IMG/VR virus record: IMGVR_UViG_3300044940_000489
Coordinates: 1-64,000 of that record
Length of the DNA: 64,000 bases
Reading direction: 5' to 3' (one strand)
From: a virus
Part shown: positions 20,405-59,400 of the stretch, piece after piece
How positions within the stretch are numbered: position 1 is the first letter of the stretch
Layout: every line of letters starts with the position of its first letter
Translations under genes and position numbers: made by a program
The notes under the pieces: model-generated
Databases searched by the model: none
The model's input: only the letters and a program-made list of their open reading frames with translations
Told to the model about the DNA's origin: nothing

Positions 20405-20476
20405 TTTATTAATATTTTATATGTTTTATTTTAATAAAAATAATAGTTGGCAAACAATAAAAATAGATGGTATTAT

Positions 20477-20762
20477 TATAAGGTCAAAAGAAAACTCATG
20501 CCTTTAGGCGTGGGATGGATTTTGAAACAAGGTAATATATAATAAGTTTCTTCAAAGTGATGCATAAATTAGTGACAGAGAAACAAATCACTAATTTATG
20601 CATTGAAGACAAAAGTCTTCAATATAATGAAGAATGTTGTATTAAAACAACAACTTGGTGGAGAGGGCAGCCTATCAAGTATAAATAAAGCCTGTGGAGC
20701 GATCAACGGTAGTTGGAGCAATGAAGCAGGAACCCCATGACTTTAGTCGTGGGAGCTGTCAG
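20477..20762 (+). mobile_element. Short IS200/IS605-type derivative (PATE-like), omega RNA-bearing, copy A
   Basis: This 286-bp element is about 90% similar to the one at 35282-35567. The left end follows an ATTAT target and begins TATAAGGTCAAAAG with a small hairpin around CTCATGCCTTTAGGCGTGGG. The interior has a 14-bp perfect stem (20562-20575 with 20588-20601) and a second 9-bp stem (20602-20610 with 20615-20623). The last 130 bp match the 3' end of tnpB (coding ...GGEGS...INKACGAINGSW...) and the right end CCCCATGACTTTAGTCGTGG, then GAGCTGTCAG. No transposase frame remains. By analogy with ISDra2, this 3' segment could give an omega RNA whose guide begins at 20763 (ATTGATTGATATTCATAATA). 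Confidence 0.8.
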
Positions 20763-20798
20763 ATTGATTGATATTCATAATAGGGTCAGGGGGCCTGC

Positions 20799-29995: not shown

Positions 29996-30061
29996 AGCAA
30001 AATGTCCTAACCTGTATACCTACTTACTGGCCCGTGCCAGCAAGATCCGCCATTAGATTGA

Positions 30062-30107
30062 CTGACAGCTCCCACGCCTAAAGGCATGGGGTTCTTTTGG
30101 CTTTATC
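30062..30107 (-). mobile_element. 46-bp minimal IS200/IS605 derivative (left end fused to right-end hairpin)
   Basis: On the minus strand a TTTAT target (30108-30112) is followed by GATAAAGCCAAAAGAA, the left-end signature. This joins directly to the right-end hairpin CCCCATGCCTTTAGGCGTGG then GAGCTGTCAG, ending at 30062. No tnpB or internal stems remain. It could be the product of an internal deletion that kept only the two ends. Confidence 0.6.
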
Positions 30108-30221
30108 ATAAAAATTAGGTTTTTAAGCTAAGTGCTTGTTTTTATTAAGATTTTATATGGTTATTTATGATACTATTTATTTTTAGAGCTTGTAATTTGC
30201 ATTAAATTTAGGTACTATTTA
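30108..30221 (-). repeat. 114-bp segment flanked by IS ends, copy 1
   Basis: About 90% similar to 37640-37754. In both places it lies between a right-end hairpin on one side and a left end on the other, with the segment starting TAAATARTACCTAAATTTAA on the minus strand. It has no open frame longer than a few codons and is very AT-rich. It is either original flanking sequence carried by duplication, or cargo moved between IS ends. Confidence 0.6.
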
Positions 30222-30531
30222 CTGACAGCTCCCACGACTAAAGGCATGGGGTTCCTGCTTCATAGCTCCAACTACCGTTGATCGCTCCACAGGCTTTATT
30301 TATCCTTGGAGGGCTGCCCTCTCCTCCAAGTGTTCGCGTTAATGCGAATTGTTTTATATTATTTGCTGCTAGTATATCCCTATCATGGGTAGTACCACAT
30401 TATATATTATATATTATATATTATATATTATATATTATACTACACCAAACTTATTAACGCCACTAACATATTATTAAGTTTTTAAAAATTCATCCCACTA
30501 CTAAAGTCGTGGACTTTCTTTTGGTTCTATC
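30222..30531 (-). mobile_element. Internally deleted IS200/IS605 element with tnpB remnant and heptamer repeat
   Basis: 310 bp with a complete left end (GATAGAACCAAAAGAAAG plus hairpin, after TTTAT at 30532-30536) and right end (GAGCTGTCAG at 30222). The start of tnpB and its middle are gone. What remains matches its last 50 codons (CGTTHDRDILAA... to EAGTP). The junction is a run of about six ATTATAT heptamers at 30396-30440. The 3' part is intact enough to encode an omega RNA; its guide would be TAAATAGTACCTAAATTTAA. Confidence 0.75.
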
Positions 30532-30689: not shown

Positions 30690-30717
30690 GTATTAGGACA
30701 GAATAGGGGGATTGTTT

Positions 30718-30906
30718 ATGAAGAAGCGTAAGCAGTTGTGGGATAAGTTGCGGTCTCAGTTGGAGGATAAGTTGCAGTCTCAGTTGGCGTATCAGTTGGA
30801 GTATCAGTTGGGGTATCAGTTGGGGGATCAGTTGGGGGATCAGTTGGGGTATCAGTTGGGGGAGCAGCTTTATAAAGGCATGAAGCATTATTATGAAGAA
30901 GCGTAG
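30718..30906 (+). CDS. Small QL-repeat protein
   Basis: ATG 30718 follows AGGGGGA, giving 62 residues beginning MKKRKQLWDKLRSQLEDKLQ. The central part is a tandem 12-nt repeat (CAGTTGGGGTAT and variants) at about 30777-30870, coding (Q-L-G-x)n with x being Tyr, Asp or Glu. The predicted form is a single helix with a regular four-residue pattern. Such repeat tracts change length easily by slippage. Function unknown. Confidence 0.5.
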   Translation: MKKRKQLWDKLRSQLEDKLQSQLAYQLEYQLGYQLGDQLGDQLGYQLGEQLYKGMKHYYEEA

Positions 30907-31246: not shown

Positions 31247-31411
31247 ATGGCAAGAGACATTAAGTATATCCGGCTTTTAATAAAGCAGACGAATAAATAT
31301 ATTAATAACCAAACAAAACCTCTTTTTGTGGATCAAATAGCCCGTCTGGAGGCTCAGGAGAAGGCCCTTGCAAAAAAACCAAAGCACAAGCCTAAGAAAA
31401 ATAATAACTAA
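31247..31411 (+). CDS. Small Lys-rich protein (54 residues)
   Basis: ATG 31247 follows a clear TTAGGAG ribosome site. The product begins MARDIKYIRLLIKQTNKYIN, then has LARLEAQ-like acidic helix and a Lys/Pro tail (KKPKHKPKKNNN). It overlaps the start of the PDZ gene by 44 nt. The good ribosome site and packing support it. Function unknown; the tail could bind nucleic acid. Confidence 0.45.
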   Translation: MARDIKYIRLLIKQTNKYINNQTKPLFVDQIARLEAQEKALAKKPKHKPKKNNN

Positions 31412-31994
31412 GCTGGGGCTACTGTCTTTATTGGCTAGCATTGTTATTCATGCATGTTCGATCTTTATTATGCCGTCAATTATGCCCGCTCCACAAAATA
31501 TGCAGCATGAATCTAGTAAGCAAGGCGGGAACAGCAAGCAGGGGTCTCAAGAGGGCAAGGGCAATTCTAATGCTGTAGAGGTTCGGATTTTGCCGCCAAG
31601 TGGCGCAAAAAGCAATAATAAAGATGTGGCAAAGAATAATAAAAGCGATGTAACGGTTACCGAAAATAAAAATAATAAAAACAAGTCGTCTACCGGATAT
31701 TATGGAATTGGCGTATATGTCATGTATTCGCATGGCCCATTCGTATCTGAAAAATATGGATCATATAGTATGGGCAATAAAATTTGGGATGTCGTGCCAG
31801 GATACCCCGCTGAACAAAACGGTTTGAAAAAGGGAGATATTATTCTGGAAGCCGATGGCGGAAGACTTGATAATGGTGATGACTGGGTTACCAGTAGTTC
31901 TCCATCTGAGATTCATCTGCTAATTTATAGGGATGGAAAATTCCTAGAATTTCGATTTATGCGAGCTTTTATTGAGACAAGCCGTGGCCCCTAA
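31368..31994 (+). CDS. Membrane-anchored PDZ-domain protein
   Basis: Starting at TTG 31368 after CAGGAGAAGG, the 208-residue product has a basic N-terminus and one transmembrane segment (about residues 16-37, LGLLSLLASIVIHACSIFIM). A Lys/Asn/Gly-rich linker (residues 45-105) leads to a C-terminal PDZ-like domain (residues 108-205: YYGIGVYVMYSHG, then VVPGYPAEQNGLKKGDIIL and LLIYRDGKFLEFRF). PDZ domains bind C-terminal peptides. No protease domain is in this protein, but a trypsin-like protease with its own anchor is encoded 1.7 kb downstream on the same strand. Confidence 0.65.
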   Translation: MQKNQSTSLRKIITKLGLLSLLASIVIHACSIFIMPSIMPAPQNMQHESSKQGGNSKQGSQEGKGNSNAVEVRILPPSGAKSNNKDVAKNNKSDVTVTENKNNKNKSSTGYYGIGVYVMYSHGPFVSEKYGSYSMGNKIWDVVPGYPAEQNGLKKGDIILEADGGRLDNGDDWVTSSSPSEIHLLIYRDGKFLEFRFMRAFIETSRGP

Positions 31995-32190
31995 GAAAAT
32001 ATTAAGAAAAGCCAATATATTAAATGGGCTTGGCATACGGTATTTTTCAGCTCAATGGCAGCGGCTCCCGCCCAATATTAGGTCGCAAATAATGCAGATG
32101 AAATGCAAGGTAACTGAGTCGGCCCTGGCAACACTTTATGGGGGGATTAGATTGGGTTATGGGTATCCTAATAAAAATGAAAAACAATAA
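31972..32190 (+). CDS. Small basic protein, unknown
   Basis: The 72-residue frame overlaps the end of the PDZ gene. Possible starts are TTG 31972 and GTG 31984, the latter with GAG seven bases ahead. The product (VAPKKILRKANILNGLGIRY, then FSAQWQRLPPNIRSQIMQMK) is basic with Trp and Pro residues and a Gly-rich end. No family is recognised; it could be a DNA-associated peptide. Confidence 0.35.
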   Translation: MRQAVAPKKILRKANILNGLGIRYFSAQWQRLPPNIRSQIMQMKCKVTESALATLYGGIRLGYGYPNKNEKQ

Positions 32191-32275
32191 ACATCCCAAA
32201 AATAAACGTATTATTTTGTTGCTAATATTATTATTTGTGTTACTATTACAGGTATATGTTGGAAAAGGCATTTGA
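32177..32275 (+). CDS. 32-residue single-span membrane peptide
   Basis: ATG 32177 encodes a very basic N-terminus (MKNNKHPKNKR), then an uninterrupted hydrophobic span (IILLLILLFVLLLQVYV) and a short end. The layout is that of an N-in small membrane peptide. It overlaps the next gene's start. Too short for any homology call; hydrophobicity is the only evidence. Confidence 0.35.
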   Translation: MKNNKHPKNKRIILLLILLFVLLLQVYVGKGI

Positions 32276-32849
32276 CATAGAACTAAACGAACTTGAGCTA
32301 AAATATCGCGCTGACGATATTAGCCTTACCGACTTCATCAGTCTAATGGAAACTATGGCCCCAGAGCGCAAGCTGGAAGTATCCTCGTGGGACGTATATT
32401 ACGCAGGGAACAAATACGGCCTCCCATTTGACTTCATTCGCCATCGCAAGGGAGACGTGCCTGAGCTTACTATAAAAATAAGGAACAGCGAGAAGAACAA
32501 CCAAGATAGGTTTGAGCTTGACCTTAAAATTCACAATAGCATGTCCAGTCGTATTGTGGCCAAATTTGCAAATATGATTGGCTTTGAGGAGAACTTTAGG
32601 ATATACAAAGATTGCACTATTTACTGGCTACAAAAAGTAGATTTAGTGTATTACATTGTGTATGATAAGGACAAAAAAGAAAAGGCCCGCTTTATTGAGA
32701 TAGAGGCCCGAAAAGATGTAACATTCAACAGCCCCGAAGAGGCATGGGGTCTACTTAAAGAAACTGAGGCCAAGCTTGCCGTTCTTGGGATTACGCCACA
32801 ATCGCGCATGAAGAAGTCTTTGTGGGATATGTTTAAGAAGGATACATAA
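32256..32849 (+). CDS. CYTH-domain protein (triphosphate tunnel metalloenzyme-like)
   Basis: From ATG 32256 the product has 197 residues. The CYTH signature is visible: ELELKYR at residues 9-15 (ExExK), DVYYAG near 40, RHRKGDVPELTIKIR (residues 55-69) and a late FIEIEA (ExE) near 150. The family (ThTPase, inorganic triphosphatase, CyaB-like) hydrolyses or cyclises triphosphate substrates in a metal-lined tunnel. Neighbouring thymidylate kinase suggests nucleotide metabolism. Substrate cannot be read from sequence. Confidence 0.6.
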   Translation: MLEKAFDIELNELELKYRADDISLTDFISLMETMAPERKLEVSSWDVYYAGNKYGLPFDFIRHRKGDVPELTIKIRNSEKNNQDRFELDLKIHNSMSSRIVAKFANMIGFEENFRIYKDCTIYWLQKVDLVYYIVYDKDKKEKARFIEIEARKDVTFNSPEEAWGLLKETEAKLAVLGITPQSRMKKSLWDMFKKDT

Positions 32850-32851
32850 AA

Positions 32852-33043
32852 ATGATGATCGAGCTGATAGGGTACTTTTTTGCTGGGGTTGCTGCTACTA
32901 TAATGTTGTCATTATTTATGCTTTTTATTATGGCAGTCCGGGCTGCGGGTGAATTGTTTAAAATCGCGGTTTATGGTGTTATTTTAGTATTTATGATAAC
33001 TACTTTGGGGCATTCTGTATTCAAAGCACTGGGGGGATTTTAA
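32852..33043 (+). CDS. Small membrane protein with two spans
   Basis: 63 residues with two hydrophobic segments (IGYFFAGVAATIMLSLFMLF and FKIAVYGVILVFMITTLGHS). Starts 2 nt after the CYTH gene and its final TAATGG overlaps the kinase start. Tight coupling suggests co-expression with both. Function unknown; a holin-like or anchor role is possible but unsupported. Confidence 0.45.
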   Translation: MMIELIGYFFAGVAATIMLSLFMLFIMAVRAAGELFKIAVYGVILVFMITTLGHSVFKALGGF

Positions 33044-33690
33044 TGGCGGCGACTCTTGTGGATATTGAGGGGCTAGATGGATCTGGCAAAACTACTGCGA
33101 TCAAAACCTTGTGTTCTGCATTGCTAGAGATGGGCTTTAGGGTACTTGAGACTCGTGAAGTTGGATCGCAACATGTTCCTTTTGCTTCCAAGCTGAGAGA
33201 AATAGTTTTGGACCCAGCCAATAAGCTGGATGGAACTACAATGGAGCTTTTGTTTGCGGCAATGCGCATTGAAAGCCAAAAAGAGTACCGTAGAGTTTCC
33301 GAGGATTATGATTTTATTGTGTCAGACAGGGGATACTTGTCTCACCTGGCATATACGGATCATAACGTAAACGAAGATTTTACAAAAGATTTTTATCTAA
33401 CTCTACTAAACAAGTACCTGCCTGCAAAGCCGGATCACGTTTTATATTTATCAGTAGATCCGGAAGTAGCCCTTAGGCGCCGCATGAGACGAGGAGAAGT
33501 GCCGGATGCGATTGAGATTAAGGGCGTCCAATTCCAAACGATGGTTGGGAAAAGTTTTAAAAAGTACTTACGTCAGGAAATGGGAAATATTGATGTATCA
33601 ATTATTGATGCGAATAAAACGGCGGAAGAAGTTCGCTCAATGATTTTAGAATATGCCAGCTTTTTAGCTCGCGGGAAGGCAATGTCATGA
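33043..33690 (+). CDS. tmk: Thymidylate kinase-like protein
   Basis: The 215-residue product has the P-loop IEGLDGSGKTT at residues 8-18, the DRGYLSHLAYT motif (DR(Y/F)..S type) near residue 95, and a LID-like Arg-rich segment ALRRRMRRGEVPD near 145. Length and order fit bacterial and phage thymidylate kinases, which phosphorylate dTMP to dTDP. Deoxynucleoside kinases share the P-loop, but the DGSGKTT form and DR motif favour dTMP kinase. Coupled with both neighbours by overlaps. Confidence 0.8.
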   Translation: MAATLVDIEGLDGSGKTTAIKTLCSALLEMGFRVLETREVGSQHVPFASKLREIVLDPANKLDGTTMELLFAAMRIESQKEYRRVSEDYDFIVSDRGYLSHLAYTDHNVNEDFTKDFYLTLLNKYLPAKPDHVLYLSVDPEVALRRRMRRGEVPDAIEIKGVQFQTMVGKSFKKYLRQEMGNIDVSIIDANKTAEEVRSMILEYASFLARGKAMS

Positions 33691-34433
33691 TTTTAAATTT
33701 TTTAGTAAATGCGCTTAAGCTTGTTTCGCGCCCAATCTCGCTGTTTCTCGCAGTAACAGCTTTGACCATGGCTATCGCGGCGTCAATTCAAGTTGTATTA
33801 TGGATAAACCAAACATTTTTTTCTGTTAGCGATCTGCAATACCGCGACAATCTACCGGCTTTTGAGTCATCAGACGCACAAGGTCCTCAAGCGGGGCGCG
33901 AAGCGCTGATTAGGCTTACGAACTCCAAAGGTCAGCACATTTGCTCCGCTTTCGTAGTCAGCAACAGATATGCCATTACAGCTGCACATTGCTTAGACGA
34001 AGCGAGTGGGATCTTGACTAGAAAAAAGTTTAAGGTTTTTGATATCGAAAGAAAAGATACAGGAATTGAGGTAGAGGCGGTCGGTCTCGTTAATAGAATG
34101 GATATGGGTTTGGTAATGGGAGACTTCTCTGGCTTTAAAAAGCTCTCTCTTGATAGCCCCCCTAAGGGCTTTTTAGGGCGAGAAAGCTCCGTCTTTGCTG
34201 CATGCGGATTTCCTATGGGCGACAAAGAGCTATGCATACCTCAATTAGTAGGTCCAAATATTTATTTCATGGTGCAAGTTGATAGGCCAGTATACCCAGG
34301 AATGAGTGGCGGGCCCGTAATTGACTTGAAAGATGGAACTGTAGTCGGAATTATAAGCAGCACGGAAAGGGGCGGGTCATTAATGGCTCCGATTGTGTCC
34401 ATCTGGAGCGCTTTTGGAATTGAACAAAAATAA
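33687..34433 (+). CDS. Membrane-anchored trypsin-like serine protease
   Basis: 248 residues. An N-terminal transmembrane segment (about residues 18-40, ISLFLAVTALTMAIAASIQV) precedes a chymotrypsin-fold domain with the complete triad: His in AITAAHCLDE (about 106), Asp in NRMDMGLVMG (about 147) and Ser in YPGMSGGPVIDL (about 214). The fold is that of HtrA/DegP proteases but without a PDZ domain. A separate membrane PDZ protein lies upstream. The predicted topology puts the catalytic domain in the periplasm. Start overlaps tmk by 4 nt. Confidence 0.75.
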   Translation: MILNFLVNALKLVSRPISLFLAVTALTMAIAASIQVVLWINQTFFSVSDLQYRDNLPAFESSDAQGPQAGREALIRLTNSKGQHICSAFVVSNRYAITAAHCLDEASGILTRKKFKVFDIERKDTGIEVEAVGLVNRMDMGLVMGDFSGFKKLSLDSPPKGFLGRESSVFAACGFPMGDKELCIPQLVGPNIYFMVQVDRPVYPGMSGGPVIDLKDGTVVGIISSTERGGSLMAPIVSIWSAFGIEQK

Positions 34434-35281: not shown

Positions 35282-35567
35282 TATAAGGTCAAAAGAAAAC
35301 CCATGACTTTAGTCGTGGGATGAATTTTGAAACAAGGTAATATATAATAAGTTTCTTCAAAGTGATGCATAAAATAGTGACAGAGAACCAAATCACTAAT
35401 TTATGCATTGAAGACAAAAGTCTTCAATATAATGAAGAATGTTGTATTAAAACAGCAACTTGGAGGAGAGGGCAGCCCTCCAAGGATAAATAAAGCCTGT
35501 GGAGCGATCAACGGTAGTTGGAGCTATGAAGCAGGAACCCCATGCCTTTAGTCGTGGGAGCTGTCAG
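35282..35567 (+). mobile_element. Short IS200/IS605-type derivative (PATE-like), omega RNA-bearing, copy B
   Basis: 286 bp, close match to copy A at 20477-20762 across the whole length. Follows a TTTAT target at 35277-35281. The left-end hairpin is around CCCATGACTTTAGTCGTGGG, then the 14-bp stem (one mismatch here: AAAATAG versus CTAATTT) and the ATTGAAGAC/GTCTTCAAT stem, the tnpB 3' remnant, and the right end CCCCATGCCTTTAGTCGTGG then GAGCTGTCAG. A guide would start at 35568 (AAAGCTATACGTGATTAAAT). Confidence 0.8.
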
Positions 35568-35585
35568 AAAGCTATACGTGATTAA

Positions 35586-36374: not shown

Positions 36375-37639
36375 CAGCTCCCACGACTAAAGTCATGGGG
36401 TTCCTGCTTCATAGCTCCAACTACCGTTGATCGCTCCACAGGCTTTATTTATGCTTGGAGGGCTGACCTCTCCTCCAAGTGTTCGCATTAATGCGAAACG
36501 TTTTATATTTTTTGCTGCTAATATATCCCTATCATGGGTAGTACCACATGACGAGCATGTCCAAAACCTGTCTTTCAGGGCTAAACTATCATTCTTAGCT
36601 CCGCAAGTACAGGTTTTTGAACTAGCATCAAACCTACCAATCTGTATGACATTTTTGCCATACCAATCGGCCTTATACTTAACCATACTGACGAATTTTG
36701 ACCAACTAACCGAGCTAATTGACTTGGCTAAACGGCTATTTTTCATCATCCCAGAGATGTTTAAATCTTCAAAGCATAAAGCGGCAATTTGGTTCTCTGT
36801 CACCAATTTATGCGATAATTTATGAAGAAAATCATCTCTCTGGTTGGTTATTTTTTCATATGTTTTTGCTAACTTAATTCTTGCTTTTTCTCTGTTTTGA
36901 GATCCTTTTTGTTTTTTTGATAATTCCTTATGCCTTTTGACAATTTTCTTTTCTGCTTTTTCTAAAAACTTAGGGTTAGGAATTTTTGTACCGTTAGATA
37001 AAACTAAGAAATCTTTAATTCCTAAATCAATACCTAAAGTATTGTTTTCATTGATTTTTTGTTTGTTAGGCAATTCTAAGCCATCTTCAACTAAAATTGA
37101 AATATAGCATTTATTAGTTTTTGATTTAGAAACTGTACAGGTTTTAATGGCGCCTTGAAACTTGCGATCTTTAGCAAACTTAACATATTTCAATTTTGGG
37201 ATGAATACTTGGTACTCTTCAAAATCTACTTTAACTCCTTGTGGAAAATGACAAGATGCCTTACTTCTTCTCTTTGCCTTAAACTTTGGGGAGTCTGAAT
37301 TTTTTCTAAAAAAGTTAATAAATGCTTTATCTAGATTTTTTAAAGATGCTTGCAAACTTTGCGAATAAACATCATTTAACCATCCAAATTCTTCTTGTTT
37401 TTTAAGTTTTGTTAATTTTTTAATTAAATCAAAACAAGATAGATTTGTTTTATCTTGTTGATATTGTTTAGTTTTTTGTTCTAGCCCCCAATTATAAATA
37501 AAACGTGCAGCCCCAAAAAACTGCTCTAGTTTTTTGGCTTGCTCTACAGTTGGGTATATTCTATATTTATAAGATCTAATCATATATATTATGCTGCACC
37601 AAACTTATTAACACCACTATTATATCATTTGGTATTTTC
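36371..37639 (-). mobile_element. IS200/IS605-type element with intact tnpB, no tnpA
   Basis: 1269 bp read on the minus strand. The left boundary follows TTTAT (37640-37644) with GAAAATACCAAA, and the right end is CCCCATGACTTTAGTCGTGG, then GAGCTGTCAG at 36371. It carries tnpB only; there is no Y1 transposase tnpA in the window. Compared with the deleted copy at 30222-30531, about 45 bp including the left-end hairpin are missing after the ACCAAA, so mobilisation by a Y1 transposase may be impaired. The right-end guide would be TCGTCATACTCTTGTATTGT. Confidence 0.8.
36393..37583 (-). CDS. tnpB: TnpB RNA-guided nuclease (IS200/IS605 OrfB)
   Basis: 396 residues. N-terminal helix-turn-helix/WED part (RSYKYRIYPTVEQAKKLEQF, then FGAARFIYNWGLE), then a RuvC-like nuclease with all three acidic positions: Asp in GIDLGIKDF (about 191), Glu in ALCFEDLNISG (about 269) and Asp in THDRDILAAKN (about 353). 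The zinc ribbon is complete (CTCGAKN...CSSCGTT, about 331-350). TnpB cuts double-stranded DNA next to a TAM using an omega RNA from the element's right end. The TAM inferred from the insertion boundaries here is TTTAT. No inactivating changes were seen. Confidence 0.9.
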   Translation of the reverse strand: MIRSYKYRIYPTVEQAKKLEQFFGAARFIYNWGLEQKTKQYQQDKTNLSCFDLIKKLTKLKKQEEFGWLNDVYSQSLQASLKNLDKAFINFFRKNSDSPKFKAKRRSKASCHFPQGVKVDFEEYQVFIPKLKYVKFAKDRKFQGAIKTCTVSKSKTNKCYISILVEDGLELPNKQKINENNTLGIDLGIKDFLVLSNGTKIPNPKFLEKAEKKIVKRHKELSKKQKGSQNREKARIKLAKTYEKITNQRDDFLHKLSHKLVTENQIAALCFEDLNISGMMKNSRLAKSISSVSWSKFVSMVKYKADWYGKNVIQIGRFDASSKTCTCGAKNDSLALKDRFWTCSSCGTTHDRDILAAKNIKRFALMRTLGGEVSPPSINKACGAINGSWSYEAGTP

Positions 37640-37813: not shown

Positions 37814-39298
37814 CTAGGTTAGTGCCAAAGACCAACGCTTCTTGCCGCAATTCCATATTCTAAAATAGCCCTGCTCTAGCCTTAGCTGATGCTCAGTCTT
37901 TCCTGTTGTACGCTCTTGAGCCGTCTTTTTAAGAGATTGCTTGGAGTATCTATTGGGCCCCTTAATGTAGCTATAATCTGGCTTCATGTCTTCTTCCATA
38001 GTGAAGCCGCAAGCCTCGTAGACAGCGCCGTCGCTTATAGAGTTATCGGACCAAGTTATAATGGTCTTGTAGCGCATACGGATCAGACTTGGCACCGAAT
38101 GAGAGATTAATTTCTTGGCACCGCCAACAATACTTATTCCTGATTTAAAGCAGAGGCGATTCAGTACTATTTGGCCCGATCCTGATCCCCTGTGGTGTTT
38201 GCCGTAGGTGACTACGCCGACAATCTCTTCTTTATGTAATAGACCTACGGCATATTGAATTGAATTCGGGGCACCCTGAATATGATACTTGTTGAGAAAG
38301 GCTTTGGCCTCCGGAGCCACTATCTCGCGTGCATCACAATCTCTTGCGTATATTTTTTTATTTATTCCTAGCTTAGAAGACAAGTAGCCCTTTACTTGGT
38401 CTTTTCTGTCTCGCCACTGGTCTTCAAAAATGTGTATAACCTGCTTAATACCATTAGCCTTAGCTAGCTTGTTCTTATTAATGTGATAGTTTGGCCCCTT
38501 TCCCGTAGCTTCCGAATGCCAGTAAAGGCCGTTATACTCGATTCCGATATTGAGATCCGGAATATAAATATCAATTTCTAATTCGCGACCAAACTTTTTG
38601 CGATTTAGTGCATTAATGCCCAAAGAGCGTACCCATTCAAATAGCTCTACCTCACACTCTGATGTGCCAGTCATGTATCCAATGTTTGCGGCGCTAAATG
38701 CCTGGTCCACCATTCCAAGATCTGAAAGATATTTGGCTGCTCCGGAATATTTTTTATTAAACTCATTTCGAGTCTTGCACTCGGCCATCTTGTCTACACA
38801 GACATCGAACGTCCATTTTTTGTTGACAGGCTTGCGCGGAGCTTTCGGGATAATCGCTTGAACTTCAGACAGCATGCCAGCTTTTGAGGCGTACATATAC
38901 GCTTGCCTGTATGTTTGCCTAAAGGCTGTATAGCTCTCACATTGCCTAGCAATATCTAATACAGATTCTTTGGTCCACTTTTTATTGTGTGGTATTTTAG
39001 GGCTGGAGCGGAAGACCGATTTTAATTCTTTTAAATATCCGTTCGCAACAGCATGCTTGTAGGCGCCTGAGTATTTCTGTATAAAATCTGATATATTGGC
39101 GGACTCTTCTGTCTTGGATAGTACTAGGTCTTTTGTCCAATTAGTGACCGCCTGATCCATATGCTGGCACACTTGATTGAGCCACCCATTTCTATGCGCA
39201 GCGGCATAGTATGGCCGAGCACGCTTTTCAAACTCTTTGCGAAAAGAATATTTCTTGGCTTCGATTGCGATAGATTCAAGTGTATATTTTTTAGTCAC
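37814..39298 (-). CDS. Vsr-like (EDxHD-type) homing endonuclease with four N-terminal repeats
   Basis: 494 residues. Residues 10-205 hold four repeats of about 45 residues (EFEKRARPYYAAAHRNGWLN; FIQKYSGAYKHAVANGYLKE; FRQTYRQAYMYASKAGMLSE; FNKKYSGAAKYLSDLGMVDQ), probably DNA-binding modules. A Vsr/PD-(D/E)xK-like core follows: ELEIDIYIPDLNIGIEYNGL, then YWHSE, H-x-x-K and IHIFEDQW (about 235-300). The C-terminal 190 residues (REIVAPEAKAFLNKYHIQG...) form an accessory domain common beside this nuclease in phage proteins. It is free-standing at the end of the tail operon, after a terminator. Confidence 0.65.
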   Translation of the reverse strand: MTKKYTLESIAIEAKKYSFRKEFEKRARPYYAAAHRNGWLNQVCQHMDQAVTNWTKDLVLSKTEESANISDFIQKYSGAYKHAVANGYLKELKSVFRSSPKIPHNKKWTKESVLDIARQCESYTAFRQTYRQAYMYASKAGMLSEVQAIIPKAPRKPVNKKWTFDVCVDKMAECKTRNEFNKKYSGAAKYLSDLGMVDQAFSAANIGYMTGTSECEVELFEWVRSLGINALNRKKFGRELEIDIYIPDLNIGIEYNGLYWHSEATGKGPNYHINKNKLAKANGIKQVIHIFEDQWRDRKDQVKGYLSSKLGINKKIYARDCDAREIVAPEAKAFLNKYHIQGAPNSIQYAVGLLHKEEIVGVVTYGKHHRGSGSGQIVLNRLCFKSGISIVGGAKKLISHSVPSLIRMRYKTIITWSDNSISDGAVYEACGFTMEEDMKPDYSYIKGPNRYSKQSLKKTAQERTTGKTEHQLRLEQGYFRIWNCGKKRWSLALT

Positions 39299-43566: not shown

Positions 43567-46500
43567 TATGCCCTCTTAATCTGCTTTAATTTACTCATTA
43601 GATTGCCTAGTACTTTTTTATTAGAGTCATCTGAATTCAAAATAGTAGGACCACTGATTTTCATTGGCTCACTAATGGTAGTTCTATTAACCTCAACTGG
43701 GCCAGAAACTATCCTGGGGCCAATAGCCGCTTTCTGTACTTTAGGTGCAGACTGTTTGGACTGAAAAGGGGTCTGCATTTTGCCGCTCAGATCTGGGTCA
43801 AAAAGCTTTTGCTGACCTGGCTGCGGACTTACAGGCCCGGACGGAGCTGCCGTTGATACTGGTGGCTTGGGTGCGAATTGCTTCTTGGCATGAAATTCCT
43901 TAAGAGCTGCATCCTTTTTAGCCTGCTTCTCAGCTCGCATCTGATGCATCATTTCCTTAAGATATTTATTTTTATTAAGATCTTCACTTTTTTGTGCCTT
44001 TGTCTTCTTGTTTAAAAAACTAAGGATCTTGGCAGCCCTCTTCTTCTGTTGATCTTGTGAAATAGCAATTGGGCCTTTTTTATCATAATTTAAAATTGGA
44101 TCTTTGGTTTTAATATCATCACCGACAGGGTGTCCAAAATGGTCATAGGAGGGGTCGTGATGAACAGAGGAATCCGTACCGCTATCGTGAATAACGACTT
44201 TAGCAAGGGTTTTGTTTTTTATAAAGTTTTTTAAAATTTGAGATTTTTTCAAATTTTCCCCAATCTTCTCGCTTGATGCGAGCTTTTTCGATTGCTCTTG
44301 TTTATATTTAATATAACTTGGGTTTGCTGCTATAGCTGAACGAACGAGCGAATAATCATCATTTACAAGTCTTTCGTAGTGCCTTGGATCTAGATTTGGA
44401 TTTTCTGCTATAGCTGAACGGACGGACCAATCCTCATCATTTACAAGTCTTTCGTGGTGCCTTGGATCTAGATTTGGGTTTTTTGCTATAGCGAAACGAA
44501 CGGACCGCTTCTCATCATTTACAAGTCTTTCGTAGTGCCTTGGATCTAGATTTGGATTTTTTGCTATAGCTCTACGAACATCCCCATCCTCATCATTTAC
44601 AAGTTTTTCGTGGTGCCTTAGATCTAGATTTGGGTTTTCTGCTATAGCTCTACGAACCTCCCTATCCTCATCATTTACAAGTTTTTCGTAGTGCCTTGGA
44701 TCTAGATTTGGATTTTCTGCTATCGCTGAACGGACGGACCAATGCTCATCATTTACAAGTCTTTCGTAGTGCCTTGGATCTAGGTTTGGGTTTGCTGCTA
44801 TAGCTCTACGAACATCCCCATCCTCATCATTTACAAGTTTTTCGTGGTGACTTGGATCTAGGTTTGGGTTTGCTGCTATGGTTCTACGGACGAGCGAATT
44901 ATCATCATTTACAAGTCTTTCGTAGTGCCTTGGATCTAGATTTGGATTTTTTGCTATAGCTGAACGGACGTACCAATCCTCATCATTTACAAGTCTTTCG
45001 TAATGTCTTGGATCTAGATTTGGGTTTTTTGCTATAGCTCTACGGACGTACGAAACATCATCATTTACAAGTCTTTCGTGATGTCTTGGATCTAGATTTG
45101 GTTTTTCTGCTATAGCTGAACGAACGAGCGTATCATAATCATTTGCAAGTCTTTCGTAGTGCCTTGGATCTAGGTTTGGTTTTTCTGCTATAGCTGAACG
45201 AACGAGCGTATCATAATCATTTGCAAGTCTTTCGTAGTGCCTTGGATCTAGGTTTGGGTTTGCTGCTATAGCTCTACGAACTTCCATATCCTCATCATTT
45301 ACAAGTCTTTCGTGATGTCTTGGATCTAGGTTTGGATTTTTTGCTATAGCTAAACGAACATCTTTATGCTTTTCAGGCAATTTAACGCTTCCAGACAAGA
45401 TTTTTTCTATTCCCTCATTGTCCAAAACAACTAAACCAGGATTGGCCAGCTTGACCTCTTTTTGCAATTTTGGCGATAAATCGTTAAAATCAAAGTTCTT
45501 TTCAGATTCGTAGCCCCCGCCAATAACGCCTTTAATCCTTTTATCTTTTAGTAGATTGGCGATATCCTGGTGATATTCTTTTGCTGGCTTGTCGTTTCCT
45601 CTGCCCTTCATTTCTCCTAAAAAACCATTATTTGAAATAAAAGTCAAATGCGGTTCATGGTAGATTTTATCCCCAACCTTGTGCTCTGTTCTTAAAGATA
45701 GGATTTTATCCCCTTTGGTCTTAGATGGAACATTTCCGCAATGTCCCATTGCTTTGCCTTCATTCTCGCAAGCACCAACACCTAATCCAAACCAGTGTCT
45801 GTTGGGTTTAGTGCCTTGAACCACTTTTTGGGTTTTTGATGAGGGGCTGACAAGGTTTTTATTTTGTTTAATCCTTTCGTTATACGTGCTGTATGCATCT
45901 TGAAAGATTTTTCTTCCAGAATTCAAATCATGCTCTTTATCAAATCTGACTTTAGCCACCTCTGGGATATGAGTAGAACCCCCAAAGTGCTCCAATTCTT
46001 GCTTCACTTCTTTAGTAAAATCGCCGGGATTATTTCTATAATGCCTAGCGGCCCAAATCTGCCAGTTTTGATTTGGTAGGGCTTTTGAAGCCCAATCCGC
46101 GAATTCATGATGATGGGGTTCTGGCTGAGTACCCATCATTTGAAGAATATCTTTTTTACCCTTCTCTAATGGTTCAAAATTTGTTTTTAAGTTTTTTTCA
46201 ATCTTTTCAGGCAAATTCTTGCCCTTAGACTCTTTGTTCCAATGCTCTACAGCTTTTTTGCCGCCCAAAGCCTTCGTCCCGGCAGATGTATTTGCCCATC
46301 TTCTTTGTGCTTCCGAAGAATAAGGCTTCATTAGTGGCTTGTGCTTTTCGCCAGAAATATCCGATTCAGGAAGTCTTGGTTTTGACCCTAGAGATTTTAG
46401 AATTTTACTGGCACTTACTTTTGCGCACGACCCCTTTGAGTACGGCTTTTTGCCTGGAACTGGCGCATAACCCTCCCAGCATCTTTTGTTAAGTCCCTCT

Positions 46501-53837: not shown

Positions 53838-56400
53838 CTGATACCTCTTTTGCCAAATTAGGCCCCTCAGTCCACAACATATCAATTATGTCGTCTGGAT
53901 TTGGAGAAACATTGATTAACTTTGTAACTAATAGCCATCTCGCTATTACTGGTTTTGGATCTAAATTATATTTTTCTAGTATAGTGGCCAATTGCTTCGG
54001 ATCTACGTTATTTAAAAAAGCTCTAATATTGTCCTTGGCCTTTTGTGATGTGGTCCTTGGCATTCTATCATATTTCTGTTCGGTACTCATCTTGTCTTTT
54101 ATTCTGCCGACCCTGAGGAAGTACGGAATAAATATATTTTCGTCTTCCTTGGGATTAAAATCCATTCCGGCAAATGCCGAACCATGATCTATAAGCTTGA
54201 TGGTTTTGCCATCGGTTAATATATTTTGTCCATGAGCATCGGCTTCACCAAGTATATACAAAACTCCGGCAAGTTTATGGATATATCCAGACTCTAACAT
54301 TGGAGCCAGAGTTCTCAGGAGCTTGTGCTTATCTTGAGAGTATACTTCCGAAGCTGGCTTAAATTGCTCGGGATACATTTTAATAGCTACAGCTGGAACT
54401 TCTTGTTTATTTTCTGTTAAAAGTTTTCCATAAACTGCTTTTGGGGTATAATTCTCAAGCCCAAAAATATCTTTGGCGACTTCATAGAATGCGGCCTCTT
54501 TTGCCACTTGGCTTCCAGAAAGAGATTCTACGGCAGGTCTATTCGGAACATCTACCTTTACAAGCCAAGAATTTTCTGGATCATATCCAACCACAAAAGA
54601 CTGATGTGTAAAATGACCCAGATTTTTTAGGCTATGGGTATGGCCGGCGCGCATTAATTCACTTATTTGTTTGGATATGTCAGAGTCTTTTTCAAAAGTT
54701 GATCTGAATTCTTCAAATTTTTGCCCGTTTTCTGACTTATTAAGTTTAGTATCTGAAGCCGTGCTTCTTGGATTTTCCAAAGCCAGCATTTTTCGATATT
54801 TATTAAACTTCTGGACATAAGGATGTGCCGCTATATCTTCCGGATGTTTTCCAAGAGTACCCGTAATTCCATTCAACCAAGCATGAGCCATGGCATTCTT
54901 GTCGCCATCAAATCTTCTCTCTAGCCTGTTCCAATGGGTGTTGGCTAATTCTCTTTCTAGATTGGGATTTGAAAGAACCAATTTATGTATTTTATCATGG
55001 TCATTAACATGATGCAGATTTTTAAACTCAGGATATTTTTCTCTTAGGGCAGGGCTTTTATTAATAATCTCAAGAGCCTGTAAAGGCATTATTCCAAATC
55101 GCCCAATAGCCTTAGTGCCGCGATTCAGGCCCGATGTAACAAGCGGGTGCTCTAATTTTTTGCCGCCCGAGCTTTCAATTTGCTTGATGGCATAAAGATC
55201 AGGGTGTAAGCTTACTTGCTCAACTGGCTTAATAATCTTGATACTATCTTTGGGGTTAATTGCGACTGTGGGTGCGGGAGCCATCGACTGCAGTGGGACG
55301 CCTAAATTGGCAGCGACGGCGCCTGCGGTAATCCATTTTTTAATGGCGCCCTTCTGCAGTTCTTCGTACGGTATGTCGTACTCATTTGCAGCAAGCTTCT
55401 TGCTTACCCCCCTAATATTCCCGGGTTTAGCTGGTGCCGCCATATTAGAGGGATCTTTAAATGAAATGTGCTGTGGTTTAACAGAGATTTTAGGATCTTT
55501 ATGTGCAAAAACGAGCTCTTTTTCTTCTGGGTGTGCACTTTTTTGGCCGTGAACAACAGAGTGCGTTCCAGAGTGCAAGATGTCTTTGACTGGCATCCAT
55601 CTACTAATTACTATGCCATGCCCTGCTTCTTGACCGGGAATCTTGTCTCCCCTCTCATGAGCAAACCGATTGGCCATATCCCAATCGCTTGTCCAGGACG
55701 ATAGCGGCGCTACAGGAATCTTGAGATGCTTATTATCGACTTCATTAGAAATATGATCGTGAGCCAAAGCATTTTTTATGTGTTTTGCATAATTGCCGCC
55801 AACCCCACGATGAACTAGTACATGAGGCTCTCCACCGATATTCTTTTTTTTCAGAAAATCGTCATTCATTACGTGGCGCTGGACTTCTTGGGCATAAGCT
55901 TTTAAATGCGGCAGAATATGGGACTCAGATTCTCCTGTATTGCCGCGATGATCTTTAATAGATTCATGGGCTCCTGTCAGCATTGACTTAACAGTGGCGA
56001 AATGCTTGGGGTCTACGGCCTTTTCATATCCATTCCACCAATCTGCGGCCTGCTTAAGTGGCTCATACTGCTCTGTATATTTAAAGTTGGGATGCCCCAT
56101 AAACTTTTCTTGCTCATAATGAGAATCTCTAGATGCATACGCCAATCTATTTAAGGTTTCTGCACTTAGATTTTCAGGCAAATTACTAGCAAGCTCAAAA
56201 AGAAACCCGGTTCCCAAATCTGGCTTACGCTCAATCCTATTTAATACCATGTTAATTGCGTATTCAGGCATTTCTCCCGAGGACGGCAGCCTTTGAAGGG
56301 CATCCCAGTTAGTTGGCAGGCGTAATGCAGTGTTTATGGCACTATCCCAATCGCCGTTTTCAATATGCTGATACATTTGTTTTTCTAAGTCTCTATACAT
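53830..56400 (-). CDS. ADP-ribosyltransferase-like, lytic transglycosylase and kinase-like fusion protein
   Basis: The ATG at 56400 (TAATG overlap) is preferred, giving 856 residues. An ART-like domain at about 190-310 shows HVLVHRGVGG (Arg), LSSWTSDWDMANRFA (S-T-S position) and HPEEKELVF (ExE), the R-S-E order. A lysozyme-like transglycosylase lies at about 400-540, with catalytic Glu in AIKQIESSGG and GRFGIMPLQA. A kinase-like C-terminal region (about 570-800) includes GEADAHGQNIL (catalytic Asp, metal Asn) and LIDHGSAF. Three enzymes in one chain would suit a protein injected into the host; that is inference. Confidence 0.65.
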   Translation of the reverse strand: MYRDLEKQMYQHIENGDWDSAINTALRLPTNWDALQRLPSSGEMPEYAINMVLNRIERKPDLGTGFLFELASNLPENLSAETLNRLAYASRDSHYEQEKFMGHPNFKYTEQYEPLKQAADWWNGYEKAVDPKHFATVKSMLTGAHESIKDHRGNTGESESHILPHLKAYAQEVQRHVMNDDFLKKKNIGGEPHVLVHRGVGGNYAKHIKNALAHDHISNEVDNKHLKIPVAPLSSWTSDWDMANRFAHERGDKIPGQEAGHGIVISRWMPVKDILHSGTHSVVHGQKSAHPEEKELVFAHKDPKISVKPQHISFKDPSNMAAPAKPGNIRGVSKKLAANEYDIPYEELQKGAIKKWITAGAVAANLGVPLQSMAPAPTVAINPKDSIKIIKPVEQVSLHPDLYAIKQIESSGGKKLEHPLVTSGLNRGTKAIGRFGIMPLQALEIINKSPALREKYPEFKNLHHVNDHDKIHKLVLSNPNLERELANTHWNRLERRFDGDKNAMAHAWLNGITGTLGKHPEDIAAHPYVQKFNKYRKMLALENPRSTASDTKLNKSENGQKFEEFRSTFEKDSDISKQISELMRAGHTHSLKNLGHFTHQSFVVGYDPENSWLVKVDVPNRPAVESLSGSQVAKEAAFYEVAKDIFGLENYTPKAVYGKLLTENKQEVPAVAIKMYPEQFKPASEVYSQDKHKLLRTLAPMLESGYIHKLAGVLYILGEADAHGQNILTDGKTIKLIDHGSAFAGMDFNPKEDENIFIPYFLRVGRIKDKMSTEQKYDRMPRTTSQKAKDNIRAFLNNVDPKQLATILEKYNLDPKPVIARWLLVTKLINVSPNPDDIIDMLWTEGPNLAKEVSDV

Positions 56401-59400
56401 TAGGCCCACCTGTGGGTAGAGTACTTAATTATATCATTCCATGGCATATCTATGTCAACATTTTCTACATTTTCTAGTAGATTTTTAAGCTTTTCAATTT
56501 GATCTGGGTCCAATTTTTCTTTCTTTTTGAGAGTATCTGACCAAGTTGATTTGCCCTTAAGATATGGGTTGTGCTGCGTTTCAAGTTCGCCGTATTTAGA
56601 GGGCTTATAGCCCATCTTTTTAGGGTGCTGATTATAAGTAAATTGCATATGGGCTGGCACTGGCATAGGGAAGGATATTGGGTAAGATTCAATTTCAGAT
56701 TCACTCAGTAGGGGCCGCTGCTGTCTTATAATTTCTTTTGACTTGGCTTCCCAGTTTTCTGGAGTCATGCCCTGCTGCTTAATCCAGTTTTTGGCGTGGT
56801 TGACCGTTGCCGGGGGAAGTCTATCGCCAACAGATAGATCATTATTGATTATTTTTCCAATGTCCTGTAAATTGATGTACCCGGAACTTGACATTCCTGA
56901 CAGATCAGCTTTTTCTTTACTGTCCCAAATGTGAACCTTACTGCCAACTCGATTATTGTCTCTTAAGTGCTGCAGGAACGCCTCATGGAGTATTTCATTT
57001 GGATGCTTGTTATTAAAAAGTATCTCATTTATTTTATTATAATGCTCTTCTGGCCACTTGGCATGCGCGTTTGCGTAAGCTTGCTCGGCCTGCTGTTGGT
57101 TAATTTGGCCTGAGCTTAATGCGTCCTTTATCTGCTTTTGTGCCTGCTTGATAAATGACTGACCAAAATCAGACTGAATTTCATCTATATGTGTATTGCC
57201 TTGTTGATCTTGAGTATAGCGAACCCATCCAATAGTATTATCAAGAACTGGATGTTTTGAGCGCTTCGATGCCTCTTGCATGTTCTTAAAAGTTCCCCAA
57301 ACTCCCGACTCTTTCATCTTGTCTGCATGTTCTTTTGTGAAGTTTAACTGAAATACCTCAGATGGCTCATATGTATGGCGCTGCTCTTCCAGGGCATTCT
57401 CATATGCCTGCTCGTGCGTTACACCGTAATCGCCAGAATCGAAGTTGTCCATATGGCGATCTTTGGCCGATTGAACTTCGCGCTCATAAGAATCTTTATC
57501 TAGATACTTGTCGTCCTTCTCTGCCAAATAATCGTAATCATCTAAATTGAAGCCGTCTTCCCAGTCTCGTCTGGCATCGTCTAGCGCCTGTTCATATTCT
57601 TCATGAGAGTCGAAGTCAGTCTCGTCAAAATCCGGCTTAAATTGTTTATTATGATATTTTTTGATTTTACCATAATCAAGAAAATCACTCTTGTGTACGC
57701 CATAATCTTCTGGATTAAAAGCTTCTAAGTGATCTGACAGCATATCCTCAAGGTATCGAGGGCTATCTTCTGAGCCATAGCTCGTTTTACTAAAACCAAA
57801 TTTCATCTTGGGCTGAGCGTCTATGTGCCTCTGAATGTCTTCGTGATGAATATGTCCGGTGCCATCCAATAGATGCGATATTCCTAGGGCTTGCGGGGAG
57901 TGTCCGGCCAGCTCCAGATCTTTTTTGTGCATTTTCCCCTCGGAACCATTATTTATAATGTGGTCTCTTGCTGACCTAAGTTTATTAGTTCCTAAGGCAA
58001 ATTCAACTTGGTTTGGATCTGTATATATTCCTCTTTCTCTTAGTTTCTTGGACAAGTGCGTCCTATAATGTGGGCTTACTTGGCGATGAGCAAGCATCAG
58101 CTGATCCTCAGTTGTTTTGGGATTGTTGCCAAGCTTAAGCCAAAACGAATCGTCTTTATAGGGATGTTTTCGGGCCAAAACAGTATTAATTGCCTTTTCA
58201 ATATGTCTAGGCTCGGCATTAGGGTGATTAATAGCGTAATTGTTTGCTCTAGTGTCGCCGTGCGAAGCCAGCCAGTTGAGCTGCCAATCATCAAGATTTG
58301 CATCCTCATGCACGGGAACGCTTGAGGGTAGGGCTCCAGAGCTGGAGCTGAGTGCCTTCTGTACTTTGGCTATCCATGCAGCACGGTCCCTATCGATCGC
58401 TGGCTTTATGTGCCTGCTATGTTCTGCATTGGGGTGTATATGTATGCTTTTTCTAATATCTTCATCTGAGTGAGAAGCAATGACATCTAGTACTTCTGGA
58501 GAATACTTGCCTCGATACGTTGGATTGTCTAGAAGATCATGTAGCCTTGCTTGAGCCTCATCTTTTTCCCAGGAAAATTCTAAATTTTTAAGCGGCTCTA
58601 ATTTTTGATAAAGATCATTTAATTTACTCTCAAATAATTCTGGATCTTGAAATGTTCTGGCTGAGTGCTCTGGCATCGGCCATCCGTTACGGACCCTTGT
58701 TGCGGCTTCGTCTTTTATTAAGTCCTCAGTCTTATAGAGGTACGCCCTTAGCTTTTTAACATCTGAAGCCATAGCCCTATTGGGATCTGGGCTACCCATA
58801 GGTTTAATAGACAGATTAACCGACGGTAATCCATTTAAGTTTTGCCAAGCCTTATGGGCGTTCTGAGATACCGCGTAGTCGCTTTCTAGTCTGCCGTGAT
58901 GCGCCAAAGCAGCTGCGTATGCGAGCTTACCGTGACCGTGCCCAGCATGTTGTGGATTTACGTGAGACTCTGTGACTATTGGTTCATTTGTGTATGGCTC
59001 GATACTAACTTGGACTCTCGCCATATGAGTATCGTGTGGATGCTTAGAATCCGAAACAGCGTGATAAAAAATAGGAGATTTTTCTGGGCCATAATGTCCA
59101 GCAAAAGTATGATGATACAATCCGTTTTTAAGCTGCTTTGAGGACACGTGTTTATACGATTTAGGTATATCGTGCCAGCCGTCAAAGGACTCTAAGTTAG
59201 TGTTCTCAACCGGTGCCTTTTGTAGCTTCTCAAACTCCATATCAAAGTCTGCATCGTCAATTGACTTTTTAAGCTTAGGGGGGCTTAGGTCAATCTGATG
59301 TCCGTGATTCTCAGATGCAGGGGCCTCTTTTAGCGCAGAATCGTGGCCATAAACGGGCATGCCATAGCCTTCGTTCATAATTTCCTTGGCAGACATGCGA

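What the first reader, a model, noticed from the sequence alone, without database searches (positions are those of the whole stretch)
31368..34433. Possible split HtrA system: a membrane PDZ protein and a membrane trypsin-like protease as separate genes
HtrA/DegP proteases normally hold the protease and PDZ in one chain. Here an anchored PDZ protein (31368-31994) and an anchored protease with an intact His-Asp-Ser triad (33687-34433) are encoded on the same strand 1.7 kb apart. They could meet at the inner membrane and cut host envelope proteins or block other phages.
Basis: partly seen in the sequence, partly recalled or inferred. Interest (0 to 1): 0.6.

Follow-up and report, generated by a model that had tools for sequence, protein, structure and literature searches.

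The report
Phage TonB-like PDZ protein, exported protease
A virus of bacteria carries a membrane protein that combines the motor-docking end of the bacterial envelope proteins TonB and TolA with a peptide-grabbing PDZ domain, and often also an exported trypsin-like protease, which suggests that it taps the host's envelope motors; it looks only superficially like a protease (HtrA) split in two.

Summary
The window belongs to a 119.5-kb phage contig related to Myxococcus phage Mx1. A membrane-anchored PDZ protein lies at 31368-31994 and a membrane-anchored trypsin-like protease with an intact triad (H101, D139, S207) at 33687-34433.

The reading 'split HtrA' is only partly supported. Among 30 Mx1-like contigs of at least 100 kb, the two genes occur together more often than chance (6 both, 2 PDZ only, 4 protease only, 18 neither; p=0.007). 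In one relative they are adjacent and overlap. But the proteases are of several types, mostly lie elsewhere, and also occur without the PDZ gene; one phage has PDZ and no detectable protease.

The new finding is the PDZ protein's N-terminus. In all eight family members the only membrane helix carries Ser-x3-His, the pair by which TonB and TolA dock on ExbB/TolQ. Seven of eight then have the core of the TonB 'D-box' (exact in five; 0.2 expected). Of eight invariant residues in the family, two are this Ser and His.

Best reading: a phage-encoded TonB/TolA-like transducer (or decoy) capped by PDZ instead of the TonB/TolA domain. Function is inferred; motor binding is untested.

The parts
31368..31994 (+). 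PDZ protein (208 aa): one TM helix with SxxxH, disordered linker with D-box-like strand, C-terminal PDZ
   Evidence: ORF; Pfam; AF2; family alignment
31413..31472 (+). TM helix, residues about 16-35
   Evidence: AF2 helix 6-34; hydropathy
31437..31451 (+). Ser24-x3-His28 in the TM helix (equivalent of TonB Ser16/His20, TolA Ser18/His22)
   Evidence: motif definition PMC12215075
31575..31595 (+). VEVRILP, D-box-like stretch (residues 70-76)
   Evidence: D-box definition PMC10907165
31689..31970 (+). PDZ domain, residues about 108-201
32235..32849 (+). 204-aa protein of unknown function, conserved in G002, G003 and G008; follows the PDZ gene also in G008
32852..33043 (+). 63-aa, very hydrophobic membrane protein
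33043..33690 (+). thymidylate kinase; overlaps the protease start by 4 bp
   Evidence: Pfam 7.2e-32
33687..34433 (+). membrane-anchored trypsin-like protease, 248 aa, no PDZ
33720..33806 (+). N-terminal TM anchor of the protease
33987..33989 (+). catalytic His101 codon
34101..34103 (+). catalytic Asp139 codon
34305..34307 (+). catalytic Ser207 codon (GMSGGP)

Best explanation
The PDZ protein is built like the bacterial force transducers TonB and TolA. A single inner-membrane helix with Ser-x3-His would dock on a host ExbB/TolQ-type proton motor, a D-box-like strand would be caught by ExbD/TolR, a disordered linker of about 50-100 residues reaches into the periplasm, and a C-terminal PDZ domain, in place of the TonB/TolA domain, captures the tail or an edge strand of an envelope protein. 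It would either borrow the motor to pull on that client or occupy the motor and weaken TonB/Tol function during infection. The exported trypsin-like protease works in the same compartment and is probably a companion in the same envelope-remodelling programme rather than the missing half of one enzyme. Shown: architecture, motif conservation, export signals, intact triads, co-occurrence. Inferred: motor binding, client capture, benefit to the phage.
For: Ser and His of SxxxH are two of only eight invariant residues in eight family members whose identity to the window protein is 18-27%. Of 427 ORFs with an N-terminal hydrophobic segment in five of these phages, six have SxxxH: the three PDZ proteins then known and three ORFs judged spurious. 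The exact D-box pattern lies between TM and PDZ in 5/8 (0.21 expected in shuffled linkers, 0 of 5000 shuffles as high), its core in 7/8 (1.45 expected, 0 of 5000). AF2: TM helix 6-34, disorder 40-105, folded PDZ. One member (G008) also has a TolA-II-like Ala/Lys/Glu-rich stretch. Published work: the Ser/His of SHLS contact ExbB/TolQ (PMC12215075); transducers with a different cap (vWA) are known (PMC12204202). Co-occurrence p=0.007; adjacency in G035; in the window phage the core protease site is empty while another protease type sits in the PDZ block.
Against: The TM segment is too short for a significant sequence match to TonB or TolA. The Leu and last Ser of SHLS are not conserved (last Ser in one of eight by eye), though the Ser-His pair is the conserved part. 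No MotA/ExbB-type protein was found in the five phages searched, so the motor must be the host's, and the host is unknown. The eight proteins are homologues, so conservation is not eight independent events; the D-box regular expression was set here, allowing Ala/Gly in hydrophilic and Pro in the last position. No binding or force data.
Confidence: 0.58

Rival explanations
1. Split HtrA: the PDZ protein presents substrates in trans to the separately anchored trypsin-like protease, together doing what DegP/DegS do in one chain.
For: Co-occurrence in 6 of 8 PDZ phages and in all three PDZ clades, Fisher p=0.007; one gene block in the window phage and overlapping genes in G035; the protease is HtrA-like in fold (low-confidence model) and lacks a PDZ; both window proteins match different parts of one phage family, phrog_11383, PDZ 1.3e-5 and protease 0.042.
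Against: Motor-docking motif unexplained; PDZ matches Prc/S41 models in 7/8 members and degP_htrA_DO in 6/8; proteases of several types, in G002, G007, G008 and G010 far from PDZ; protease without PDZ in G029, G036, G046; PDZ without detectable protease in G037, whose core region is present.
Confidence: 0.17
2. Lysis or envelope-breaking module: PDZ protein and protease help disrupt the outer membrane at the end of infection, as a replacement for spanins.
For: In G035 the pair lies next to a phage lysozyme (Pfam 3.9e-35) and a TM+coil protein; in G002 the PDZ gene is near a weak M15-peptidase match.
Against: No lysis gene recognised beside the pair in the window; elsewhere the PDZ gene follows or precedes an aminotransferase-like, demethylase-like or phosphatase gene.
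Confidence: 0.12
3. Two unrelated accessory genes, a moron PDZ protein and a moron protease, with the Ser/His a by-product of shared ancestry.
For: Both sit in a variable accessory block not shared with Mx1; three PDZ clades are few events.
Against: Ser/His survive where overall identity is 18-27%; the D-box-like stretch adds a second, separate match; co-occurrence p=0.007.
Confidence: 0.13

Closest known systems
TonB / TolA force transducers (ExbBD, TolQR motors)
   Same: Single N-terminal TM with Ser-x3-His, D-box-like strand, disordered linker, globular periplasmic C-terminal domain
   Different: C-terminal domain is PDZ, not TonB_C/TolA_C; no motor genes alongside; encoded by a phage
vWA-capped transducers (PMC12204202)
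   Same: TonB/TolA-like front end with an unrelated cap
   Different: Cap is vWA, adjacent to motor genes, bacterial
HtrA/DegP/DegS family
   Same: Trypsin-like fold and PDZ, exported
   Different: Two genes, different anchors, PDZ also Prc-like, several protease types
S41 C-terminal processing peptidases (Prc/CtpA)
   Same: Best PDZ match by fold search, and by NCBIfam in 7 of 8 members
   Different: No S41 catalytic domain
MarP (Rv3671c) membrane-anchored protease
   Same: HtrA-like protease domain on a membrane anchor without PDZ (from general knowledge); fold match
   Different: Other anchor; a bacterial protein
phrog_11383 (phage family, 462 positions)
   Same: Holds a stretch like the protease and a stretch like the PDZ in one chain
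   Different: Fused; members and function not examined here; the protease match is weak (0.042)

Membership tests
TonB/TolA | Single N-terminal TM with Ser-x3-His (SHLS) | tested here: met
   8/8 members for Ser-x3-His; Leu and final Ser of SHLS not conserved
TonB/TolA | D-box/motor-box strand after the TM | tested here: met
   Exact in 5/8, core in 7/8, against 0.21 and 1.45 in shuffles; sequence pattern only, binding not tested
TonB/TolA | TonB_C/TolA C-terminal domain | tested here: not met
   PDZ in 8/8; no TonB or TolA model in Pfam at E<=1
TonB/TolA | Binds and is driven by ExbBD/TolQR | not testable with these tools
   Needs experiment; no MotA/ExbB-type gene in the five phages searched
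HtrA | Trypsin-like domain with intact triad | tested here: met
HtrA | PDZ in the same chain | tested here: not met
   Separate genes in every phage where both occur
HtrA | PDZ regulates or feeds the protease | not testable with these tools
   Only indirect: co-occurrence and one adjacency
HtrA | PDZ of HtrA type | tested here: inconclusive
   prc model matches 7/8 members, degP_htrA_DO 6/8; the window member itself matches degP best; fold hits CtpA first, then DegP/DegS
GspC (T2SS) | T2SSC domain together with PDZ | tested here: not met
   No T2SSC match among Pfam results at E<=1

The most novel reading that the evidence does not exclude
Phages encode their own envelope force transducers: a PDZ-capped TonB/TolA-like rod that plugs into the host's proton-driven motor and pulls or presents envelope proteins, in many cases to a phage-encoded exported protease.
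Probability: 0.25. Interest if true: 0.85.

Novelty: new variant of a known kind. Interest (0 to 1): 0.6.

Why it matters
Motors of the TolQR/ExbBD type power outer-membrane upkeep, nutrient uptake and gliding, and many phages and bacteriocins exploit them from outside. A phage protein that carries the motor-docking handle with a new cap would be an inside hijack or decoy of these motors. It would extend the set of transducer caps (TonB, TolA, vWA) to PDZ, and it gives a simple prediction: two residues, Ser24 and His28, should decide its function.

Tried and rejected
Direct searches with each window protein found only the same population in viral contigs and nothing in 50,697 phage records. 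A genome scan with the TnpB gene to guess the host gave one Bacteroidota MAG at 48%, so the host stays unknown. No MotA/ExbB-type gene in five phages. The only hit of a PDZ member among phage records is an S41 peptidase on an unannotated fecal contig. Plasmids: none. A better PDZ profile (A6) added no further PDZ phages. 'Spanin pair' and 'GspC' readings found no sequence support. Absence of protease in G003 was discarded as evidence because its contig lacks the region where relatives carry the gene. Literature searches found no phage PDZ-protease pair and no phage-encoded TonB/TolA-like protein in the held library. The protease model is of low confidence (pLDDT 61), so its fold match is only supportive. 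Searches were errors, one search was an empty placeholder and a report with a format error.

Full report
CHECK. The window is the first 64 kb of a 119,536-bp IMG/VR virus record. They lie in a plus-strand block of small genes with a thymidylate kinase, a conserved 204-aa protein and a 63-aa membrane protein. The PDZ start is TTG with AGGAG seven bases upstream; the protease ATG overlaps the stop of the kinase gene.

WHICH PHAGE. The tail sheath matches only Myxococcus phage Mx1 among 50,697 phage records (41%); structural and replication genes match Mx1 in many places but the plus-strand block does not. A scan with the capsid protein found 69 Mx1-like loci in IMG/VR. The host is unknown.

RELATIVES. 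The PDZ protein has homologues in seven of 49 searched Mx1-like records (G002, G003, G007, G008, G010, G035, G037). Trypsin_2 proteins occur in ten (G002, G006, G007, G008, G010, G026, G029, G035, G036, G046). In a capsid tree the PDZ gene falls in three clades, each of which also has the protease. On contigs of at least 100 kb, window phage included, the table is 6 both, 2 PDZ only, 4 protease only, 18 neither (Fisher p=0.007); at 150 kb and above 4, 0, 3, 13 (p=0.007). These p-values treat contigs as independent; by ancestry there are only three PDZ clades. Of the two PDZ-only records, G003 lacks the whole gene cluster where relatives carry the protease, so it says nothing; G037 has that cluster but no protease in its 137 kb. 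G006 starts inside its protease gene, the closest match to that of the window (36%), so a PDZ gene could lie off its end.

WHERE THEY SIT. In G035 the protease (134035-134730, -) and PDZ gene (133553-134038, -) overlap by 4 bp. In the window phage they share one block. In G002, G007, G008 and G010 the protease sits in a replication cluster beside an SbcC-like endonuclease gene (in G002, G007 and G008 directly before a RuvC-like gene), tens of kb from PDZ. In the window phage that site is empty (between 95155 and 95156 of the record) and a different protease type is in the PDZ block. By inspection, all proteases whose N-terminus is present have export signals: TM anchors (window, G010, G026), Sec signals (G002, G007, G008) or lipobox-like signals (G029, G035, G036, G046). 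None has a PDZ.

WHAT THE PDZ PROTEIN IS. All eight members have one N-terminal membrane helix containing Ser-x3-His: SIVIH, SAIAH, SILLH, SMITH, SCILH, SVIFH, SLALH, SLLIH. In the eight-member alignment (18-27% identity to the window protein) only eight columns are invariant; two are this Ser and His, the other six lie in the PDZ part. As background, among 427 ORFs with an N-terminal hydrophobic segment in five of the phages, six have SxxxH; three are the PDZ proteins and the other three look spurious. TonB Ser16/His20 and TolA Ser18/His22 form this pair (the first part of the SHLS motif) and contact ExbB and TolQ in cryo-EM structures (PMC12215075). After the helix TonB has the D-box, hydrophobic and hydrophilic residues alternating with a final hydrophobic pair, that ExbD captures as a strand (PMC10907165). 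The pattern occurs in 5/8 linkers (window VEVRILP, G002 VTVDLIT, G003 VEVALIE, G007 IDIEIVE, G035 MEVTVVD; Ala allowed in a hydrophilic place and Pro in the last) against 0.21 expected in shuffles, its core in 7/8 against 1.45 (0 of 5000 shuffles as high in both). AlphaFold2 gives a helix 6-34, disorder 40-105 and a folded PDZ. Six of eight have a Cys just before the PDZ and one near the C-terminus, and the window and G008 members lack both, so they look like a disulfide pair gained or lost together. The PDZ matches S41/Prc models in 7/8 and degP_htrA_DO in 6/8, and CtpA, then DegP/DegS, by fold.

MECHANISM. Shown here: architecture, motifs and their conservation, export, intact triads, co-occurrence. 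Inferred: the TM docks on a host ExbB/TolQ-type motor (the phages searched encode none), the D-box engages ExbD/TolR, and the PDZ holds a client. TonB and TolA caps bind by strand addition (PMC12204202), and PDZ domains do so too (general knowledge), so the swap is mechanically plausible. Whether the protein pulls or only occupies the motor cannot be told. The protease is best seen as a companion in the same compartment; exported subtilases also occur in G035 (Pfam 1.5e-54) and by motif in G002.

KNOWN OR NEW. Membership in TonB/TolA fails on the C-terminal domain; membership in HtrA fails on the single chain. A 2025 survey of transducers describes vWA caps and does not mention PDZ, and the held literature shows no phage-encoded version. 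It is therefore a new variant of a known kind. Cellular homologues could not be searched for in the likely host phyla, so an origin in bacteria is open.

Noticed in passing
36393-37583 (-), with end-like copies near 20473-20763, 30060-30300, 35458-35570, 36370: TnpB-like gene with IS-type ends and several short copies of its end sequence (about 88-99% alike), possible non-autonomous elements; nearest genome hit is an Ekhidna MAG at 48%.
   Followed up: partly
30712-30906: Small ORF made of a repeated QLxYQLG/DQLG-type unit.
   Followed up: no
44474-45478: Degenerate tandem repeats of about 175 bp in the gene of the 1229-aa protein; the two near-identical contigs break here.
   Followed up: no
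37814-39298 (-): Homing endonuclease/HNH-type ORF (PHROG 1.7e-84) inside the structural region, next to the small conserved gene after the tail sheath.
   Followed up: no
L119:1998-2590 (-), L120:2001-2566 (-): In G003 and G007 an exported thioredoxin and a ~70-aa Cys protein directly precede the PDZ gene, in members whose PDZ has the Cys pair.
   Followed up: partly
L124:419-1405 (+): In G037 a haem-dependent N-demethylase-like gene (Pfam 5.5e-11) overlaps the start of the PDZ gene by 4 bp.
   Followed up: no
L140:12756-13595 (-): Exported subtilase (Peptidase_S8) 4.7 kb from the PDZ gene of G035; a subtilase-like motif also in G002 at 55636-56502.
   Followed up: partly
record 89234-91996 (+), outside the window: GroEL-like gene of 920 aa in this phage, larger than Mx1's and those of relatives (about 600 aa), C-terminal part about 60% like them.
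   Followed up: no
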